The notes under the pieces are model-generated. The model saw only the letters and a list, made by a program, of their open reading frames with translations, ran no database searches and had not been told where the DNA came from. From a virus, in IMG/VR virus record IMGVR_UViG_3300005293_000016, positions 1 to 22,096 of that record: a stretch of DNA of 22,096 nucleotides; one strand, given 5' to 3'. Shown in pieces: positions 1,451-18,840 of this stretch; the first letter of the stretch is position 1, and every line of letters begins with the position of its first letter. The translations under genes were made by a program, and so were the position numbers.

Positions 1451-1458
1451 AATACCTG

Positions 1459-1487
1459 TTGACAGACCGTTATTAGCGTTCTATTGT
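1459..1487 (+). promoter_or_regulatory. Sigma70-type promoter with operator-like palindrome (module 1)
   Basis: A consensus -35 TTGACA (1459-1464), a 17-base spacer and TATTGT (1482-1487). The spacer holds CGTTATTAGCG (1468-1478), an imperfect 11-base palindrome that starts 9 bases after the start of the -35, as in the promoters at 5091 and 7504. The leader down to the ATG at 1520 ends CACGGAGCAACGACA, and a similar leader follows the promoters at 5091 and 7504. Confidence 0.8.
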
Positions 1488-1519
1488 TCGCTCACTTGAA
1501 CGCACACGGAGCAACGACA

Positions 1520-5040: not shown

Positions 5041-5059
5041 AACTCTTTCCGTCGTTAAG

Positions 5060-5085
5060 AGCCCTACCAACCGGTGGGGCTTTTT
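5060..5085 (+). terminator. Intrinsic terminator
   Basis: AGCCCTACC (5060-5068) pairs with GGTGGGGCT (5073-5081), with one T-G wobble and the 4-base loop AACC, followed by TTTT to 5085. It is only 5 bases from the next -35 box. Confidence 0.88.
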
Positions 5086-5090
5086 AATTG

Positions 5091-5119
5091 TTGACAGACC
5101 GTTAATAGAGTTCTATCGT
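5091..5119 (+). promoter_or_regulatory. Sigma70-type promoter with operator-like motif (module 3)
   Basis: TTGACA (5091-5096), a 17-base spacer and TATCGT (5114-5119). CGTTAATAGAG (5100-5110) occupies the same position as the palindromic motif of module 1. From the -35 to base 5121, 27 of 31 positions match module 1. It drives the unit starting at 5154. Confidence 0.78.
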
Positions 5120-5153
5120 TCGCCCTACAAATACGAACAGCACGGGGCAGGAC

Positions 5154-5670: not shown

Positions 5671-6057
5671 ATGGCTAAGAAGTCCAACGCGCAGTACAAG
5701 GCTGATCAGTACGCCCGAGCAAAGGAACTGGCTGAGAAGCTGGGTATCACCAACCGCACGCTGCCACTGCCGGCCACGATTAACACCATGCTCAACGAGC
5801 TGTGCGAGCGTCACCAGTTCACCGACTGGCGGGAGCTGGTCATCAACATGATTCGTGTTGCCCACGGTGGTGCGGTTGAGCTGGTTGCAATACCTTCAAG
5901 TGGGTTTGTTCCAAGCGAGAAGCAGTTGCGCAAGGTGGGTGACCCTGACGTATGCGCAACTTGCCGGGGTAAGGGCTACATCAAGATTTCAGGTTTAACC
6001 AACGGCGGGATTGGTAACTTTACCGACCCATGCCCCAACTGTTCTGAGGATGAATGA
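5671..6057 (+). CDS. Zinc-ribbon hypothetical protein
   Basis: 128 aa, 6 bases after the membrane protein gene. The N-terminal 65 residues are basic then helical (MAKKSNAQYKADQYARAKEL...). The C-terminus holds CATCRGKGY (C95, C98) and CPNC (C121, C124); the first pair is a DnaJ-like C-x2-C-x-G-x-G zinc half-site. A two-pair zinc ribbon at the end of a small, possibly DNA-binding protein fits. No exact family recognised. The start lacks a strong Shine-Dalgarno and probably relies on coupling. Confidence 0.72.
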   Translation: MAKKSNAQYKADQYARAKELAEKLGITNRTLPLPATINTMLNELCERHQFTDWRELVINMIRVAHGGAVELVAIPSSGFVPSEKQLRKVGDPDVCATCRGKGYIKISGLTNGGIGNFTDPCPNCSEDE

Positions 6058-6529: not shown

Positions 6530-6903
6530 GCGTTGGAACTATCAAGCCAGTCGTGACCACCGAGGATGTTGCTGCATTACCAAAGGCTGACTTGCAACTG
6601 CAAGCACGCGCAGCCCTGGCGGCTGGTTACACTGTGGACGTTCGTCACATCCGCTATGAGTTCATGGTGTTCGCGAACGGCAAGCACTTTTACCCGCTGA
6701 CCAATTGGGGCCAGTGCGTGCGGTTGATTGTTGATACCCGCAGCTCATTCAGCATCAACAGCATCGGCCAGGTTTACACCGAGTTCCCCGACGCGCCAAC
6801 CGGTGAGGATTGGGAAGCCAGGCGGCCAAGCACTGATGTTGAGTATCACTTGCAGATGTGCAACGCCGTGGTCACCAACGTTGCAAAGGGGTTTCCGGTT
6901 TGA
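6526..6903 (+). CDS. NinX/DUF2591-like protein
   Basis: 125 aa, with ATGA overlap to the previous gene and a strong AGGAGG upstream. Residues about 40-120 resemble phage DUF2591 (NinX) proteins: a short helical start (KADLQLQARAALAAGY), then FMVFANGKHFYPLTNWGQCVRLIV corresponding to the family's F-x-P-x-x-x-W-x-x-x-x-x-I-I core, an acidic loop, and a closing helix after a Trp-containing stretch. NinX sits in the nin region of lambdoid phages and has no firmly known function. The similarity is one of pattern. Confidence 0.62.
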   Translation: MSVGTIKPVVTTEDVAALPKADLQLQARAALAAGYTVDVRHIRYEFMVFANGKHFYPLTNWGQCVRLIVDTRSSFSINSIGQVYTEFPDAPTGEDWEARRPSTDVEYHLQMCNAVVTNVAKGFPV

Positions 6904-7070
6904 GGTCACCGAGACAGTATTACCTGGGTGTGAAAGCAAGACTTGATGGCGTTGGGAAGTTGACGAACCCGAACGCTTATATGCAATGGGCCTGGTCGTG
7001 GTGGTTGGCCGGCTGGAACGATAAAGACAAGGAACTGATTGATGCAGAAGAAACCCAGCAACACGCGTGA
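6900..7070 (+). CDS. RMF-like small protein 1
   Basis: 56 aa from TTG 6900, overlapping the upstream TGA, with AAAGGGG about 9 bases before it; GTG 6930 is an alternative start. Pattern: YYLGVKARLDGVGKL, then TNPNAYMQW, then WSWWLAGWNDKD. This follows the ribosome modulation factor layout G-x-x-A-x-x-x-G, an N/C-P-[YN] turn, then W-L-x-G-W. RMF binds the 30S anti-Shine-Dalgarno region and drives 100S hibernation dimers. It is the first of three such genes in a row. The call rests on the turn and Trp-Leu-Gly-Trp positions, not on strong identity. Confidence 0.5.
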   Translation: MRSPRQYYLGVKARLDGVGKLTNPNAYMQWAWSWWLAGWNDKDKELIDAEETQQHA

Positions 7071-7239
7071 GCAGTGCGCTTTTGATCGTGGGGTGTACAA
7101 CAAAAAGCTTGCGCGTGTTGCTAGCCAGGCATCGGCGGCTAAAGTTGGGATTGTTGAAAAATGGCGCGAAGTTCACAACCCGCACAAGAAGGGTTCGCCG
7201 GAACATCAATTTTGGAATGAGGGGTTTGACAGCGTATGA
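7042..7239 (+). CDS. RMF-like small protein 2 (most divergent)
   Basis: 65 aa from ATG 7042, with AAGGA at 7029-7033; the TTG at 7039 is not needed. It overlaps the previous gene by 29 bases. A basic N-terminus is followed by CAFDRGVYNKKLAR, a 25-residue insertion (ASQASAAKVGIVEKWREV), then NPHKKGSPEHQFWNEGFDSV. The N-P-x-x-x-G-S and W-x-x-G-F parts sit where RMF has its C-P-Y turn and W-L-G-G-W end. Position between two other RMF-like genes supports the assignment more than the sequence does. Confidence 0.45.
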   Translation: MQKKPSNTREQCAFDRGVYNKKLARVASQASAAKVGIVEKWREVHNPHKKGSPEHQFWNEGFDSV

Positions 7240-7418
7240 CTCAGACACGTTGGTATCACGGCGGGGCCAGTCAGCGCCGCAGCGGCAAGCCATGTATATT
7301 GCCACCAGCCTGTAAGGATTGGGAGCGCCGTCACTGGCTGCAAGGCTACATTGACGCGAACAGTGCCATTGAGGCGCGAGCCAAAGAGCTGCTTGACAGT
7401 GTTCCGGTGAGTGCGTAA
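7236..7418 (+). CDS. RMF-like small protein 3
   Basis: 60 aa, with ATGA overlap to the previous gene and GAGGGG upstream. Best RMF match of the three: YHGGASQRRSGKPCILPP, then a helix, then RRHWLQGYIDA. In E. coli RMF the corresponding features are G-x-x-x-G-R-S-K-x-x-C-P-Y and Q-W-L-G-G-W-R-E-A. The basic residues before Cys fit binding to rRNA. It ends its transcription unit, followed by the strong terminator at 7456. A role in shutting down or redirecting host ribosomes is an inference from the family. Confidence 0.6.
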   Translation: MTQTRWYHGGASQRRSGKPCILPPACKDWERRHWLQGYIDANSAIEARAKELLDSVPVSA

Positions 7419-7449: not shown

Positions 7450-7502
7450 ACCTCAAGCCCCGGTTGCTTTCCCCAGCACCGGGGCTTTTCTTTGTCTGTT
7501 AT
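7450..7502 (+). repeat. Direct repeat of terminator flanks, second copy at 7842-7884
   Basis: The 13-base segment starting ACCTCAAGCCCCG and a 22-base segment beginning GGGGCTTTTC and ending GTCTGTTAT occur here (22-mer at 7481-7502) and again at 7863-7884. The hairpin sequence between the two segments differs between copies. This indicates duplication of the terminator/promoter module around the small gene 7567-7830. Confidence 0.85.
7456..7489 (+). terminator. Strong intrinsic terminator
   Basis: AGCCCCGGTTGCT (7456-7468) pairs with AGCACCGGGGCT (7475-7486) as a 12-bp stem with one bulged base, followed by TTTT. It ends the transcription unit of the RMF-like genes. Confidence 0.92.
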
Positions 7503-7503
7503 C

Positions 7504-7532
7504 TTGACGTGGCGTTAATAACGGTCTATTGT
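7504..7532 (+). promoter_or_regulatory. Sigma70-type promoter with perfect operator-like palindrome (module 4)
   Basis: TTGACG (7504-7509), a 17-base spacer and TATTGT (7527-7532). The spacer contains CGTTA-A-TAACG (7513-7523), a perfect inverted repeat with a one-base centre and the cleanest copy of the motif shared with modules 1, 2 and 3. The leader to the ATG at 7567 resembles that of module 1 (CGGAGCAA). Confidence 0.82.
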
Positions 7533-7566
7533 CCGATTACTTAAACGAACAACGGAGCAAGACGAG

Positions 7567-7848: not shown

Positions 7849-7871
7849 AGCCCCGACAGTGCGGGGCTTTT
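7849..7871 (+). terminator. Intrinsic terminator, loop GACAGTGC
   Basis: AGCCCC (7849-7854) pairs with GGGGCT (7863-7868), with the 8-base loop GACAGTGC and TTTT to 7871. The loop is the exact reverse complement of the loop of the terminator at 7987. Confidence 0.88.
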
Positions 7872-7882
7872 CTTTGTCTGTT

Positions 7883-7898
7883 ATTTGTGGTCTATTGG
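7883..7898 (+). promoter_or_regulatory. Shortened promoter-like module (module 5)
   Basis: ATTTGTGGTCTATTGG sits directly after the repeated 22-mer (sharing its last AT), where module 4 has its promoter. GGTCTATTG matches the -10 region of module 4, but the -35 and the CGTTANTANCG motif are missing. Either a decayed promoter or a different kind of site. Confidence 0.35.
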
Positions 7899-7919
7899 TC
7901 GGGCGAGTAACAAAAAGGT

Positions 7920-13395: not shown

Positions 13396-14985
13396 ATGAA
13401 CTGGAAAGACCCCGATTACCGGGGCATCCTGCAAGAGCGGTTAGACAACCTGGCCGCTATCCGCAAGAAGCCTGAAATCATCCCCGCGCTCAAGCTCCAC
13501 TATCGCGAGAACCCTGCCGACTTCGTGAACGATTGGGGCGTTACTTACGACCCCCGATTGATTGAGCGCGGCTTGTCGCCCATCGTCCCAATGATCCTGT
13601 TTCCCAAGCAGACTGATTTCATTGAGTGGGTGCTTGAGCGCTGGCGGGCGGGTGAGTCTGCGGTTGCGCCAAAGTCTCGGGATATGGGGCTCTCGGTGGT
13701 CTGCCAGCAACTGGCAGCAACGCTGTGCCTTTTCCGCAACAACATGAACATTGGGTTTGGGTCGCGTAAGGAAGACTTGGTAGACAAGGTGGGCGACCCT
13801 GACACCTTGTTCTATAAAGGACGTATGTTTCTTGACCACCTACCCGAAGAGTTCCGGGGCGGATTCAACTCGGCCAACAAGGACCACAGCAGCCACCTCA
13901 AGATTTTCATTCCTGAAACCCAATCAATCATCAAGGGTGAGGCCGGCGACAACATTGGGCGGGGTGGTCGTACCGCGCTGTACTTCGACGATGAATCAGC
14001 CTTCCAGCCTCGCCCTCAACTGATCGATGCCGCTTTATCGGCAACGACCAACTGCCGGATATCGGTCAGCTCTGTTAACGGTCGTGATAACCCGTTCGCT
14101 GACAAGGTGCACAGTTGGCCAGAACACCGGGTCTTCACGTTCCATTGGCGCGACGATCCTCGCAAAGATGACGCCTGGTATAAGAAGAAATGCGAGGACA
14201 TCGACAACCCAATAATCATCGCTCAAGAGATTGACCTGAATTTCAGCGCCTCTAAATCTGGCATCCTCATCCCAAGCGAGTGGGTGCAGGCTGCGATTGA
14301 CGCGCATGTCAAACTTGGATTCACAGCGAGCGGTGAGCGCCGTGGTGCCCTTGACGTTGCTGACGAAGGCATTGACTTGAACTGCTGGGGCAACCGTCAC
14401 GGCGTGGTCATGGAATTCATAGAAGCCTGGTCAGGTAAAGGTTCTGACACGTTCGCCACGACGGCCTACGCTTTTAAGCTTGCCGACGACAACGGTATAG
14501 ATGATTGGGACTTTGACAGTGACGGCTTGGGTGTTGGTGTTCGCGGTGACGCCAGGGTTCTCAACGAGAAGCGCAACAAGGACAAGCAGAAGGCGAACCC
14601 GTTTCGCGGCTCGGGCGCTGTGATCGAAAAGGACAAAGAAGTTTTTAAGGGCGAGCATGGTCGTAAGGGCCGAACCAACGAGGACTTTTTTGCGAACCGT
14701 AAAGCGCAAGAATGGTGGCGCCTGATGGAACGTTTCAAGATGACGTATCGCGCCGTCGTTGAGGGGCTACCGTATGACCCTGCTGAAATCGTCAGCTTCG
14801 ACAGTAAAAAGATCCCAGCAAAGGCGCTGACTAAATTGACGCAAGAGCTTAGTCAACCTACGTGGTCGCAAAACGGTAGTGGTAAGATCCTCATCGACAA
14901 GGCGCCGCAGGGCTCACGCTCGCCAAACTATGCGGACACCTGCATGATGTTGTATTCCAAGCGCGCACGCCGCTCAGGCTTCTAA
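13396..14985 (+). CDS. Terminase large subunit (packaging ATPase and nuclease)
   Basis: 529 aa, a typical TerL length. ATPase: an adenine-binding Q in LFPKQTDFIEW (Q72), a Walker A variant APKSRDMGLS (K93 to S100) of the form common in this family, Walker B ALYFDDE (D198, D199, E200), and a coupling motif near VSSVNGRDNPF. Nuclease (RNase H fold): D320 in GALDVADEG, acidic residues D374/D376 in DWDFDSDGLG, and D514 in NYADTCMML. It cuts and pumps DNA into the prohead through the portal, which is encoded next. The small subunit lies about 1.5 kb upstream. Start ATG 13396 has a weak Shine-Dalgarno and follows the previous stop closely. Confidence 0.95.
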   Translation: MNWKDPDYRGILQERLDNLAAIRKKPEIIPALKLHYRENPADFVNDWGVTYDPRLIERGLSPIVPMILFPKQTDFIEWVLERWRAGESAVAPKSRDMGLSVVCQQLAATLCLFRNNMNIGFGSRKEDLVDKVGDPDTLFYKGRMFLDHLPEEFRGGFNSANKDHSSHLKIFIPETQSIIKGEAGDNIGRGGRTALYFDDESAFQPRPQLIDAALSATTNCRISVSSVNGRDNPFADKVHSWPEHRVFTFHWRDDPRKDDAWYKKKCEDIDNPIIIAQEIDLNFSASKSGILIPSEWVQAAIDAHVKLGFTASGERRGALDVADEGIDLNCWGNRHGVVMEFIEAWSGKGSDTFATTAYAFKLADDNGIDDWDFDSDGLGVGVRGDARVLNEKRNKDKQKANPFRGSGAVIEKDKEVFKGEHGRKGRTNEDFFANRKAQEWWRLMERFKMTYRAVVEGLPYDPAEIVSFDSKKIPAKALTKLTQELSQPTWSQNGSGKILIDKAPQGSRSPNYADTCMMLYSKRARRSGF

Positions 14986-16850: not shown

Positions 16851-17692
16851 TCAAAAAGAAGGTGCGTCTTGTGCGCCGGCCAGACCCGCTAGGTACTGAG
16901 TCTAAGCGGGCGTTGACCCTCAAGCCCTCGGTGTCGGTGGGGGCTGCGTACGCTCGCGAGCTGGAAGCGCTCACCGCCGAAATGCACGCTGAGGTTGCCA
17001 AGGCAGTATTGGCCGAGTTTTCAAATACTGCCGCAGCAGACGCTGCCGATGATTTCTGGTCGCGGCTTGCTAAACGCCTGGCTTCCAAGTTCGCAGCGAA
17101 AGCAACGCCGTTGGCCACGGGGTTTCTAACTCGCGTAGACCGCAACGCAACCACCAACCTTGAGCGGTCCCTAAAGTCAACGAGCGCCGATATGACGCTC
17201 AAGATGAAAAACACGCCTGCGGTCACAAAGGCTATCAAGTCGCGCATTGCTGACAACGTTGACTTGATTACTCGCATACCCGCTGAGTTTCTGGACAAGG
17301 TAAAGCAGGACGTCAACGATTCGCTGCGTAAGGGTAACGGCCTGGCTGACCTTCAACCCAAGATGGAAGAGCGGTATGGGGAGGCCAAGAGGCACGCGCA
17401 GTTGGTGGCCCTTGACCAGACGCGCAAGGCGTACACCGCGATCAACAGCGAGCGTATGCGCGCCAACGGGGTCACCAAGTTTGAGTGGGTGCACAGTGGT
17501 GGTAGCCAAGAGCCGCGCCCGTATCACATGCACTCACCTGCGCAGGGTGGTTTGAACGGTGGGATATTCGACATCAACGACCCGCCCATTATCGACAAGA
17601 AAACCGGCGAGCGTGGATTGCCTGGTGACGATTACAATTGCCGCTGTACAATGCGACCAATAGTTACGTTTGACGATGAGGACGACGAATAA
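16847..17692 (+). CDS. Phage head morphogenesis protein (SPP1 gp7/Mu gpF-like)
   Basis: 281 aa; GTG start overlaps the portal stop. The N-terminal two-thirds are helical. The conserved C-terminal domain starts near residue 180: HAQLVALDQTRKAYTAINSERMRANGVTKFEWVHSGG, then EPRPYHM and the ending LPGDDYNCRCTMRPIV with C265 and C267. These are the signature R/D-Q, W-x-H-S and P-G-x-x-x-N-C-R-C elements of this minor head protein family, whose members sit near the portal and may be ejected with DNA. Position right after the portal gene is standard. Confidence 0.92.
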   Translation: MIKKKVRLVRRPDPLGTESKRALTLKPSVSVGAAYARELEALTAEMHAEVAKAVLAEFSNTAAADAADDFWSRLAKRLASKFAAKATPLATGFLTRVDRNATTNLERSLKSTSADMTLKMKNTPAVTKAIKSRIADNVDLITRIPAEFLDKVKQDVNDSLRKGNGLADLQPKMEERYGEAKRHAQLVALDQTRKAYTAINSERMRANGVTKFEWVHSGGSQEPRPYHMHSPAQGGLNGGIFDINDPPIIDKKTGERGLPGDDYNCRCTMRPIVTFDDEDDE

Positions 17693-18840
17693 TGGCGAGC
17701 ACGCAACGCGTCGAGGATTTCAACGGCTGGTTTGAAGTTGCGCGCAACCCAATCAGCAAGGTTGGTGTATTCCCGTACCTGGGTTCAAGCCTCGGCCCCG
17801 ACATGATCAAAGAGCAGAACCTTGACCCTGAGAAGGTTTACATGGTTTTCCGTTCGGCTGAGGAACTTGCAAAACCTGAGTTCCTGTTGAGCTGCACGCT
17901 CATCCCGTGGATCAATGACCACACCATGTTGGGTAGCGATGACAAGGGCTACACGCGGCCTGAGGAAAAGGGGATTGGTGGCGTTACCGGTGAGCAAGTG
18001 TTGTTTGATGAGAATGACGAAACGGTTTATTCGAACATCAAGTTGTTTTCCGAAGCGCACAAGAACGAAGTTGCAAACGGCAAGCGCGAATTATCGTTGG
18101 GCTACCAGTGCGCATACGAATGGAAGCCTGGTGAGTACAACGGTGAGAAATATGATTTAATACAGCGGAATCTGCGTGGCAACCACTTAGCATCAGTTGA
18201 TGATGGGCGGATGGGGCCAAGCGTTGCAGTTCTCGACCACAACGACATTAAAGGTGCATCCGCAATGGACGAAATCCAAAAACTCTTGGCCGCATTGGCC
18301 GAGGCAATTGCAAAGCTCGTACCGTCCACCGACCCTGAAAAGGTTGTGGTCGAAGACGAAGAACCAGAAGTCAAAGCCACTGACGAAGACGTCAAGGCAA
18401 CCGACGAAGAACCAGAAGTCAAAGCCACTGACGAAGACGTCAAGGCAACCGACGAAGAACCAGAAGTCAAAGCCACTGACGAAGACGACACCAAGCCGGT
18501 GACCGTCGAAGCGATGGACGCGGCTGTCAACTCCCGCGTGCTGGCGCAGTTCAAAGCCCTGCAAGCAGGTGACGCACTGGCCAAGAAACTGAAACCACAC
18601 GTCGGTGTCTTTGACCACTCGGGCAAGACTGAAGCGCAGATCGCTGCGTATGGCGTCAAGAAGCTTGGTCTTAACGTCGACAAGGGTACTGAGGTTTCGA
18701 GCCTCAAGGGTTGGCTGATCGCCAAGGGCGACCCAAGCAAAGACGTCACCGTGCGCAATGGCATGGTTGACGCAATGGACGCAGCAGACGGCAAGCCGAC
18801 TCTGATGCAACTCAAGCAAGCCGAACGGAGCAAAGCATAA
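17692..18840 (+). CDS. DUF2213-type prohead protease/scaffold fusion
   Basis: 382 aa; starts at the last base of the previous gene's stop. The N-terminal 185 residues match DUF2213: ELSLGYQC with a likely nucleophile S135, and RGNHLASVDDGRMG with H165. These are the typical Ser and His positions of phage prohead maturation proteases. Residues about 222-265 form a highly acidic repeat (see the repeat entry), then a helical part (MDAAVNSRVLAQFKAL...) like an internal scaffold. Such protease-scaffold fusions guide shell assembly and are then degraded. The capsid gene follows two genes later. Confidence 0.88.
   Translation: MASTQRVEDFNGWFEVARNPISKVGVFPYLGSSLGPDMIKEQNLDPEKVYMVFRSAEELAKPEFLLSCTLIPWINDHTMLGSDDKGYTRPEEKGIGGVTGEQVLFDENDETVYSNIKLFSEAHKNEVANGKRELSLGYQCAYEWKPGEYNGEKYDLIQRNLRGNHLASVDDGRMGPSVAVLDHNDIKGASAMDEIQKLLAALAEAIAKLVPSTDPEKVVVEDEEPEVKATDEDVKATDEEPEVKATDEDVKATDEEPEVKATDEDDTKPVTVEAMDAAVNSRVLAQFKALQAGDALAKKLKPHVGVFDHSGKTEAQIAAYGVKKLGLNVDKGTEVSSLKGWLIAKGDPSKDVTVRNGMVDAMDAADGKPTLMQLKQAERSKA
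18355..18486 (+). repeat. 48-bp in-frame tandem repeat in the scaffold gene
   Basis: Units 18355-18402, 18403-18450 and a partial 18451-18486 are identical over the shared length, including silent positions. Each encodes DEEPEVKATDEDVKAT, so the protein gains 16 acidic residues per unit. Identity at the DNA level suggests recent expansion or frequent homogenisation. Confidence 0.95.

What the first reader, a model, noticed from the sequence alone, without database searches (positions are those of the whole stretch)
6900..7418. Three consecutive RMF-like small genes
Three overlapping ORFs of 56, 65 and 60 codons share a G-rich/basic first half, an N-P or C-x-L-P turn and an ending W-x-x-G-[WYF]. 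This is the layout of ribosome modulation factor. A tandem set would be an unusual dose or diversification of ribosome-hibernation-like proteins, possibly for favouring phage over host translation or for binding distinct targets.
Basis: partly seen in the sequence, partly recalled or inferred. Interest (0 to 1): 0.68.

Follow-up and report, generated by a model that had tools for sequence, protein, structure and literature searches.

The report
Tandem RMF-like phage gene trio
A bacterial virus carries three (in relatives up to four) small neighbouring genes built on the same plan as a bacterial ribosome-silencing protein, but they lack the parts that protein uses to grip ribosomal RNA, so they are probably re-purposed cousins rather than copies of it.

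Summary
Three overlapping, conserved genes (6900-7070, 7042-7239, 7236-7418) encode proteins of 56, 65 and 60 aa. All eight related IMG/VR contigs found carry the same trio; four of them carry a fourth such gene, in one contig at a different place. Family-left-out profile searches tie ORF1, ORF2, ORF3 and ORF4 to one another and to chromosomal ribosome modulation factor (RMF). ORF1's link to RMF is firm, ORF3's good, and ORF2's indirect, resting mainly on ORF4.

The hibernation half is not. In 37 phage proteins aligned to RMF, residues that hold RMF's two helices together are kept (G16 37/37, P30 36/37, W40 37/37, G43 37/37, aromatic at W44 37/37). Residues reported to touch 16S rRNA are mostly absent (R45 0/37, K5 0/37, R3 3/37), as is C29 (4/37), needed for ribosome binding.

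Best reading: a co-translated, diversifying set of RMF-fold binding modules for host takeover, not 100S formation. RMF-like phage proteins are already known to NCBIfam; the tandem, reshuffled set is the new part. Structure prediction was uninformative.

The parts
6900..7070 (+). ORF1, 56 aa, RMF-like (phrog_10492 type); TTG start overlapping the upstream stop (TTGA)
   Evidence: phrog_10492 E 2e-9; that PHROG is also E. coli RMF's best PHROG, E 1.9e-4; profile A6 without RMF rows finds only RMF chains in the PDB, best E 1.4e-4; the Touem01 homologue passes Pfam RMF's cut-off, 28.2 vs 27.9 bits; dN/dS 0.10
7042..7239 (+). ORF2, 65 aa, most divergent RMF-like member; linker of variable length between the first G and the NPHKK turn
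   Evidence: Profile of ORF1+ORF3+ORF4+RMF (no ORF2) ranks all 9 ORF2s at 23-32 of 906 frames with one interloper, best E 3.4e-5; hhalign with ORF4 0/150 shuffles, but with RMF 6/150, ORF1 18/150, ORF3 25/150
7236..7418 (+). ORF3, 60 aa, RMF-like; several relatives keep the same GWNDKD motif as ORF1
   Evidence: NCBIfam RMF model E 0.029, below cut-off; hhalign with ORF1 family E 2.5e-6, 0/150 shuffles; left-out profile E down to 1.4e-7; dN/dS 0.38
5091..5119 (+). candidate phage promoter (TTGACA-17-TATCGT) for the transcription unit that contains the trio; lies in a 35-nt repeat
   Evidence: Consensus scan, 5 found vs 4.1 expected in shuffles; repeat family D1 at 1457, 5089, 7502, 7868
7454..7490 (+). 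intrinsic terminator-like hairpin with T run after ORF3
   Evidence: RNA fold of 7450-7500: -22.8 kcal/mol, z -4.98, 0 of 200 shuffles as good
5671..6057 (+). neighbour in the same unit: 128-aa protein with C-terminal CxxCxGxG motif; its N-terminal part resembles a protein encoded next to an ORF1-type gene in a Pseudomonas prophage
   Evidence: BLASTP 35% over 63 aa, E 9e-10 for the single comparison; Pfam DnaJ_CXXCXGXG E 3.8e-4, below cut-off

Best explanation
The locus is a co-translated cassette of paralogous RMF-fold mini-proteins (Rmf/CrpP-like superfamily) in a phage related to Pseudomonas phages. Shown: one superfamily with RMF; three genes in every relative found and a fourth in half of them, in two positions; the helix-packing residues of RMF kept; the rRNA-contacting residues mostly lost. 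Inferred: each protein is a two-helix hairpin used as a binding module against a host target during early or middle infection, and the cassette grows and diversifies by duplication and exchange. The small ribosomal subunit is still the single likeliest target for at least one member, but 70S dimerisation in the manner of RMF is unlikely.
For: Trio in 8 of 8 related contigs; ORF4 in 4 of 8, between ORF2 and ORF3 in L003, L004 and L006 but after ORF3 in L013. Left-out profile tests rank the held-out family first or nearly so. ORF1 profile versus PDB finds only RMF at low E. Pfam RMF hits ORF1-, ORF3- and ORF4-type genes in 7 of 11 records, 1 over cut-off; Pfam RMF matches 2 of 4 ORF4s, best E 0.0018. 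Residue table: G16 37/37, P30 36/37, W40 37/37, G43 37/37, aromatic at 44 37/37; R45 0/37, K5 0/37, R3 3/37, C29 4/37, set against the mutagenesis in PMC8126665. Purifying selection dN/dS 0.10-0.38. Unit bounded by a strong hairpin.
Against: The window's own three proteins get no Pfam hit and no NCBIfam hit over cut-off. ORF2's direct comparison with RMF, ORF1 or ORF3 is not significant, and a profile of ORF2+ORF4+RMF finds only one ORF1 clearly. AlphaFold models are weak (pLDDT 68.8 and 72.6; ORF3 shows only one confident helix) and Foldseek finds no PDB match. No functional datum exists; host and timing are inferred. Loss of RMF contacts does not exclude other ribosome contacts.
Confidence: 0.55

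Rival explanations
1. True RMF-like translation modulators: the proteins bind the 30S platform near the anti-Shine-Dalgarno region and silence or bias host translation, perhaps with 70S dimerisation, in starved cells.
For: Homology to RMF; basic core up to the motif, +4, +6, +5; [quoted passage not shown]
Against: R45, reported to contact C1536 of the anti-SD, is N in 15/15 ORF1, D in 9/9 ORF2 and never R in the 37 phage proteins; C29, needed for binding, is kept in 4 of 37; the basic N-terminus (R3, K5) is missing (PMC8126665). ORF1 is net neutral.
Confidence: 0.25
2. Role in phage DNA metabolism: ORF1-type proteins partner with SSB or replication proteins, and the RMF fold is incidental.
For: ORF1-type genes directly follow an ssb gene in Pseudomonas prophages L028, L029, L030, L031 and L033, 5 of 6 loci read (Pfam SSB confirmed for the three scanned, L028, L030, L033); near primase/helicase genes in Touem01 and near helicase and ParB in Psp6.
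Against: Small phage genes often sit beside replication genes; no ssb adjoins the trio in the window; gives no reason for three or four paralogues.
Confidence: 0.12
3. ORF2 is not a member: an unrelated small protein sandwiched between two RMF-like genes that shares only the W-x-x-G-F end.
For: Direct hhalign with ORF1, ORF3 and RMF not significant; no hit in Pfam, NCBIfam, PHROGs or PDB sequences.
Against: Held-out profile ranks all 9 ORF2s together with E down to 3.4e-5; hhalign with ORF4 0/150 shuffles; profile A7 without ORF2 rows hits ORF2 in 2 records.
Confidence: 0.2

Closest known systems
Ribosome modulation factor RMF (Pfam PF04957, NCBIfam NF011162)
   Same: Length 52-60 aa; G16, P30, W40, G43 and an aromatic at 44 conserved; only PDB sequences found by the ORF1-family profile
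   Different: No R3/K5 basic tail, no R45, C29 mostly N or P; tandem phage genes instead of a single chromosomal gene; window proteins below family cut-offs
NCBIfam Rmf/CrpP set (NF041886 Rmf_CrpP_fam, NF041887 Rmf_like_phage, NF033696 CrpP family ICE-associated, NF041856 CrpP-related)
   Same: Small RMF-fold proteins of phages and mobile elements; NF041887 weakly hits one ORF4 (E 0.047) and the prophage ORF1-type L029 (E 3.6e-4)
   Different: All matches of our proteins are under the curated cut-offs; no tandem array is mentioned in the model names seen
PHROG phrog_10492 (unknown function)
   Same: ORF1 belongs by score (E 2e-9; L029 2.1e-14); E. coli RMF's best PHROG is the same one (E 1.9e-4)
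   Different: Does not match ORF2 or ORF3; annotated as unknown function, not as RMF-like
Rhizobium phage RHph_I4 gp167 (RMF-like domain protein, MN988552)
   Same: RMF-like motif G..A..G....NPY...W..GF
   Different: A C-terminal domain of a 184-aa protein, single copy in the stretch read

Membership tests
RMF (Pfam PF04957) | Score over Pfam's curated cut-off (27.9 bits) | tested here: not met
   No Pfam hit for the window's ORF1-3; 0 matches in the window record. Only the ORF1 relative in Touem01 passes, 28.2 bits
RMF (Pfam PF04957) | Helix-packing core residues G16, G23, P30, W40, G43, W44 | tested here: met
   ORF1 and ORF3 in the window keep all six, ORF3 with Y for W44; ORF2 keeps G16, P30, W40, G43, has F for W44 and no G23
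RMF (Pfam PF04957) | rRNA-contact and activity residues R3, K5, C29, R45 (PMC8126665) | tested here: not met
   R3 3/37, K5 0/37, C29 4/37, R45 0/37 in the phage families
RMF (Pfam PF04957) | Two-helix fold with connecting loop | tested here: inconclusive
   AF2 models of ORF2 (pLDDT 68.8) and ORF3 (72.6, one helix) match nothing in the PDB; ORF1 was not folded
RMF (Pfam PF04957) | Binds ribosomes and forms 90S/100S dimers | not testable with these tools
   Needs expression and sucrose gradients
NCBIfam NF041887 Rmf_like_phage | Score over curated cut-off (40 bits) | tested here: not met
   1 of 11 records matches at all, 11.8 bits, and it is an ORF4; no window protein matches
Rmf/CrpP-like superfamily (broad sense) | Statistically supported homology to RMF when the tested family is left out of the profile | tested here: met
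   ORF1, ORF3 and ORF4 clearly, ORF2 with one interloper among 906 frames; hhalign ORF1-RMF 0/150, ORF1-ORF3 0/150, ORF1-ORF4 0/150, ORF2-ORF4 0/150

The most novel reading that the evidence does not exclude
A phage-borne, expandable cassette that uses the RMF fold as a scaffold: successive paralogues have shed RMF's rRNA contacts and been re-aimed at different host targets, with genes gained, lost and re-ordered while overlapping starts and stops keep them co-translated.
Probability: 0.35. Interest if true: 0.66.

Novelty: new variant of a known kind. Interest (0 to 1): 0.42.

Why it matters
RMF is known as a single chromosomal gene that shuts ribosomes down in starvation. A phage cassette of three or four RMF-fold proteins that keep the fold but not the rRNA grip would show this small fold being re-used as a binding scaffold. 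It would also give a direct way to ask which RMF features do the work, by testing natural variants that lack them. It further lets phrog_10492, listed as unknown function, be read as RMF-like.

Tried and rejected
Structure route: ORF2 and ORF3 folded with 9-row alignments; weak models, no Foldseek match, VIA-align had nothing to align.

ORF2 and ORF3 profiles against PDB sequences gave nothing or only chance matches to G-protein alpha chains over 22 residues. The ORF4 profile gave one chance match. The A7 profile's hits to RMF in the PDB and to its own training rows are circular and were not used.

tblastn of single proteins against phage records found 3, 8 and 4 records for ORF1, ORF2 and ORF3, of which only Touem01 and Psp6 (ORF1) were followed as relatives; plasmids none. 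Gammaproteobacteria drawn evenly gave RMF in only 3 of 94 genomes at E <= 1e-5, so Pseudomonadaceae were used: 141 of 148 match, 22 with two or more matches, no two listed places within 1 kb, but the listing is cut. DNA-level similarity of ORF1 and ORF3 around the motif was 16-25 of 39 bases in the 7 contigs compared, not enough to show recent gene conversion.

Rows left out: L031 (near-identical to L030) and L032 (no clear start) from the 15 ORF1 rows; L034 (a 29-residue match in a MAG) was never used; of 8 chromosomal RMF rows in A5, 5 were used.

Full report
OBSERVATION. The window is a 22,096-base virus record, which may be a fragment, with terminase, portal, primase and ParB-like genes. 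At 6900-7418 three plus-strand ORFs overlap end to start. The first begins with TTG inside the TTGA that ends the upstream gene; the second begins 29 nt before the first ends; the third begins in the ATGA that ends the second. W-x-x-G-[WYF] is in all three and in 1 of the 29 other genes listed; its chance in one ORF of this size is about 0.005. The layout G...P...W-x-x-G-[WYF] is found in these three of the 32 listed genes and in no other (the pattern was drawn up after seeing them).

CONSERVATION. Protein-guided scans of IMG/VR found eight further contigs, and all eight carry ORF1, ORF2 and ORF3 in the same order. The same eight came back for each of the three family alignments, so no contig with only one or two of them was seen. 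Four of the eight carry a fourth small gene of the same layout, ORF4: between ORF2 and ORF3 in L003, L004 and L006, and after ORF3 in L013. Pooled dN/dS over 21 pairs of the seven closest is 0.10 (ORF1), 0.24 (ORF2), 0.38 (ORF3) and 0.23 (upstream gene). ORF2 varies in length between its first G and its NPHKK turn.

WHAT THEY ARE. ORF1 falls in phrog_10492, E 2e-9, and the best PHROG of E. coli RMF is the same family, E 1.9e-4. A profile of 17 ORF1-type proteins without any RMF row, run against 177,635 PDB sequences, returned three hits up to E 10, all RMF, best 1.4e-4. Pfam's RMF model over 11 related records (all six frames) hit 7, one over the cut-off (Touem01, 28.2 bits). By position (my mapping from locus ranges) the hits are ORF1 type in three records, ORF3 in three and ORF4 in one. 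It found nothing in the window itself.

To test each family without circularity, profiles were trained on the other families and run over 906 open frames of the window and eight loci. ORF1 held out: 9 of 9 at ranks 14-22, E 3.8e-8 to 8e-4, directly behind the training rows. ORF3 held out: 9 of 9 within ranks 14-25, mixed only with ORF2s. ORF4 held out: 4 of 4 at ranks 19-22. ORF2 held out: 9 of 9 at ranks 23-32 with one interloper, best E 3.4e-5, the window's own copy E 0.03. RMF alone ranks one ORF1 first (E 0.007) and ORF3s second to fourth, then noise; a profile of ORF2+ORF4+RMF finds only one ORF1 clearly. Profile-profile comparison, number of 150 column shuffles reaching the observed score: ORF1-RMF 0, ORF1-ORF3 0, ORF1-ORF4 0, ORF2-ORF4 0, ORF3-RMF 4, ORF4-RMF 3, ORF3-ORF4 3, ORF2-RMF 6, ORF2-ORF1 18, ORF2-ORF3 25. 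So ORF1 and ORF3 are secure members of one superfamily with RMF; ORF2 joins mainly through ORF4.

WHAT THEY LACK. Yoshida et al. 2021 (PMC8126665; abstract, Results and Discussion read) changed conserved E. coli RMF residues to alanine. They found G16, C29, W40 and W44 needed for ribosome binding, and nearly all conserved residues needed for 100S formation. They report, citing the cryo-EM structure, that R3 and K5 touch helix 28 of 16S rRNA and R45 touches C1536 of the anti-Shine-Dalgarno sequence, and that G16, G23, G43, W40 and W44 pack the two helices. In 37 aligned phage proteins (15 ORF1-type, 9 ORF2, 9 ORF3, 4 ORF4) the packing residues are kept: G16 37, P30 36, W40 37, G43 37, an aromatic at 44 in 37, G23 24. 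The contacts are not: R45 0, K5 0, R3 3 (all ORF2, where the N-terminal alignment is uncertain), C29 4. R11 is kept in 17. The position of R45 is fixed by the adjacent motif and does not depend on the aligner: N in 15/15 ORF1 and D in 9/9 ORF2. This is what one expects of a kept fold with a changed partner.

SETTING. The trio ends a run of genes from 5260. Upstream is a hairpin at 5057-5084 followed by a TTGACA-17-TATCGT site in a 35-nt repeat; downstream is a hairpin at 7454-7490 (z -4.98) followed by another copy of that repeat. Promoter-like sites as such are no more frequent than in shuffles (5 against 4.1). The closest named phage by DNA is Psp6 of Pseudomonas putida, 74% over part of the primase gene, so a Pseudomonas-like host is likely but not shown. 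Single ORF1-type genes follow an ssb gene in five of the six Pseudomonas prophage loci read (Pfam SSB confirmed for the three scanned).

STRUCTURE. AlphaFold2 gave weak models of ORF2 (pLDDT 68.8, three helices) and ORF3 (72.6, one confident helix), and Foldseek found no PDB match. This neither supports nor refutes the fold.

LITERATURE. Searches of the held library for phage with RMF, with hibernation factors, with 'ribosome modulation factor-like' and with CrpP found no paper, among the titles listed, that describes phage RMF-like proteins or tandem sets (listings seen, plus passages of PMC5014867, PMC11100668 and PMC10502375). NCBIfam already names an 'Rmf_like_phage' family, so the kind is known; the library lacks most subscription papers.

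MECHANISM. Most likely: host-takeover accessory proteins on an RMF-fold scaffold, co-translated, with partners still to be found. Shown: homology, conservation, gene gain and re-ordering, the pattern of kept and lost residues. Inferred: fold in the cell, timing, host, targets.

Noticed in passing
window 1457-1491, 5089-5123, 7502-7536, 7868-7902: A 35-nt repeat with TTGACA- and TATTGT-like boxes recurs (91%, 71% and 66% identity to the first copy); the copies at 5089, 7502 and 7868 follow a terminator-like hairpin: a likely repeated terminator-promoter module.
   Followed up: partly
window 18355-18498: Three tandem 48-nt copies (two identical) inside the gene 17692-18840, giving a repeated acidic stretch in the protein.
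   Followed up: no
L019 2962-3168 (Pseudomonas phage Psp6, MG251388, about 14458-14664): An ORF1-type RMF-like gene is not annotated in Psp6; the annotated Psp6_00022 starts inside it in another frame.
   Followed up: yes
L028-L031, L033 near position 2500 (L033 near 1430): In Pseudomonas prophages the single ORF1-type gene directly follows ssb and precedes a small gene; the small gene in L033 resembles the window's 5671-6057 protein.
   Followed up: partly
L089 2569-3123 (Rhizobium phage RHph_I4 gp167): RMF-like motif as the C-terminal end of a 184-aa phage protein, so the module also occurs fused.
   Followed up: partly
L043 (Pseudomonas guariconensis, same contig as L028, about 12.6 kb away): A second, weak RMF-like match (Pfam RMF E 0.0016, profile E 0.065) in the same contig as an ORF1-type prophage gene.
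   Followed up: no
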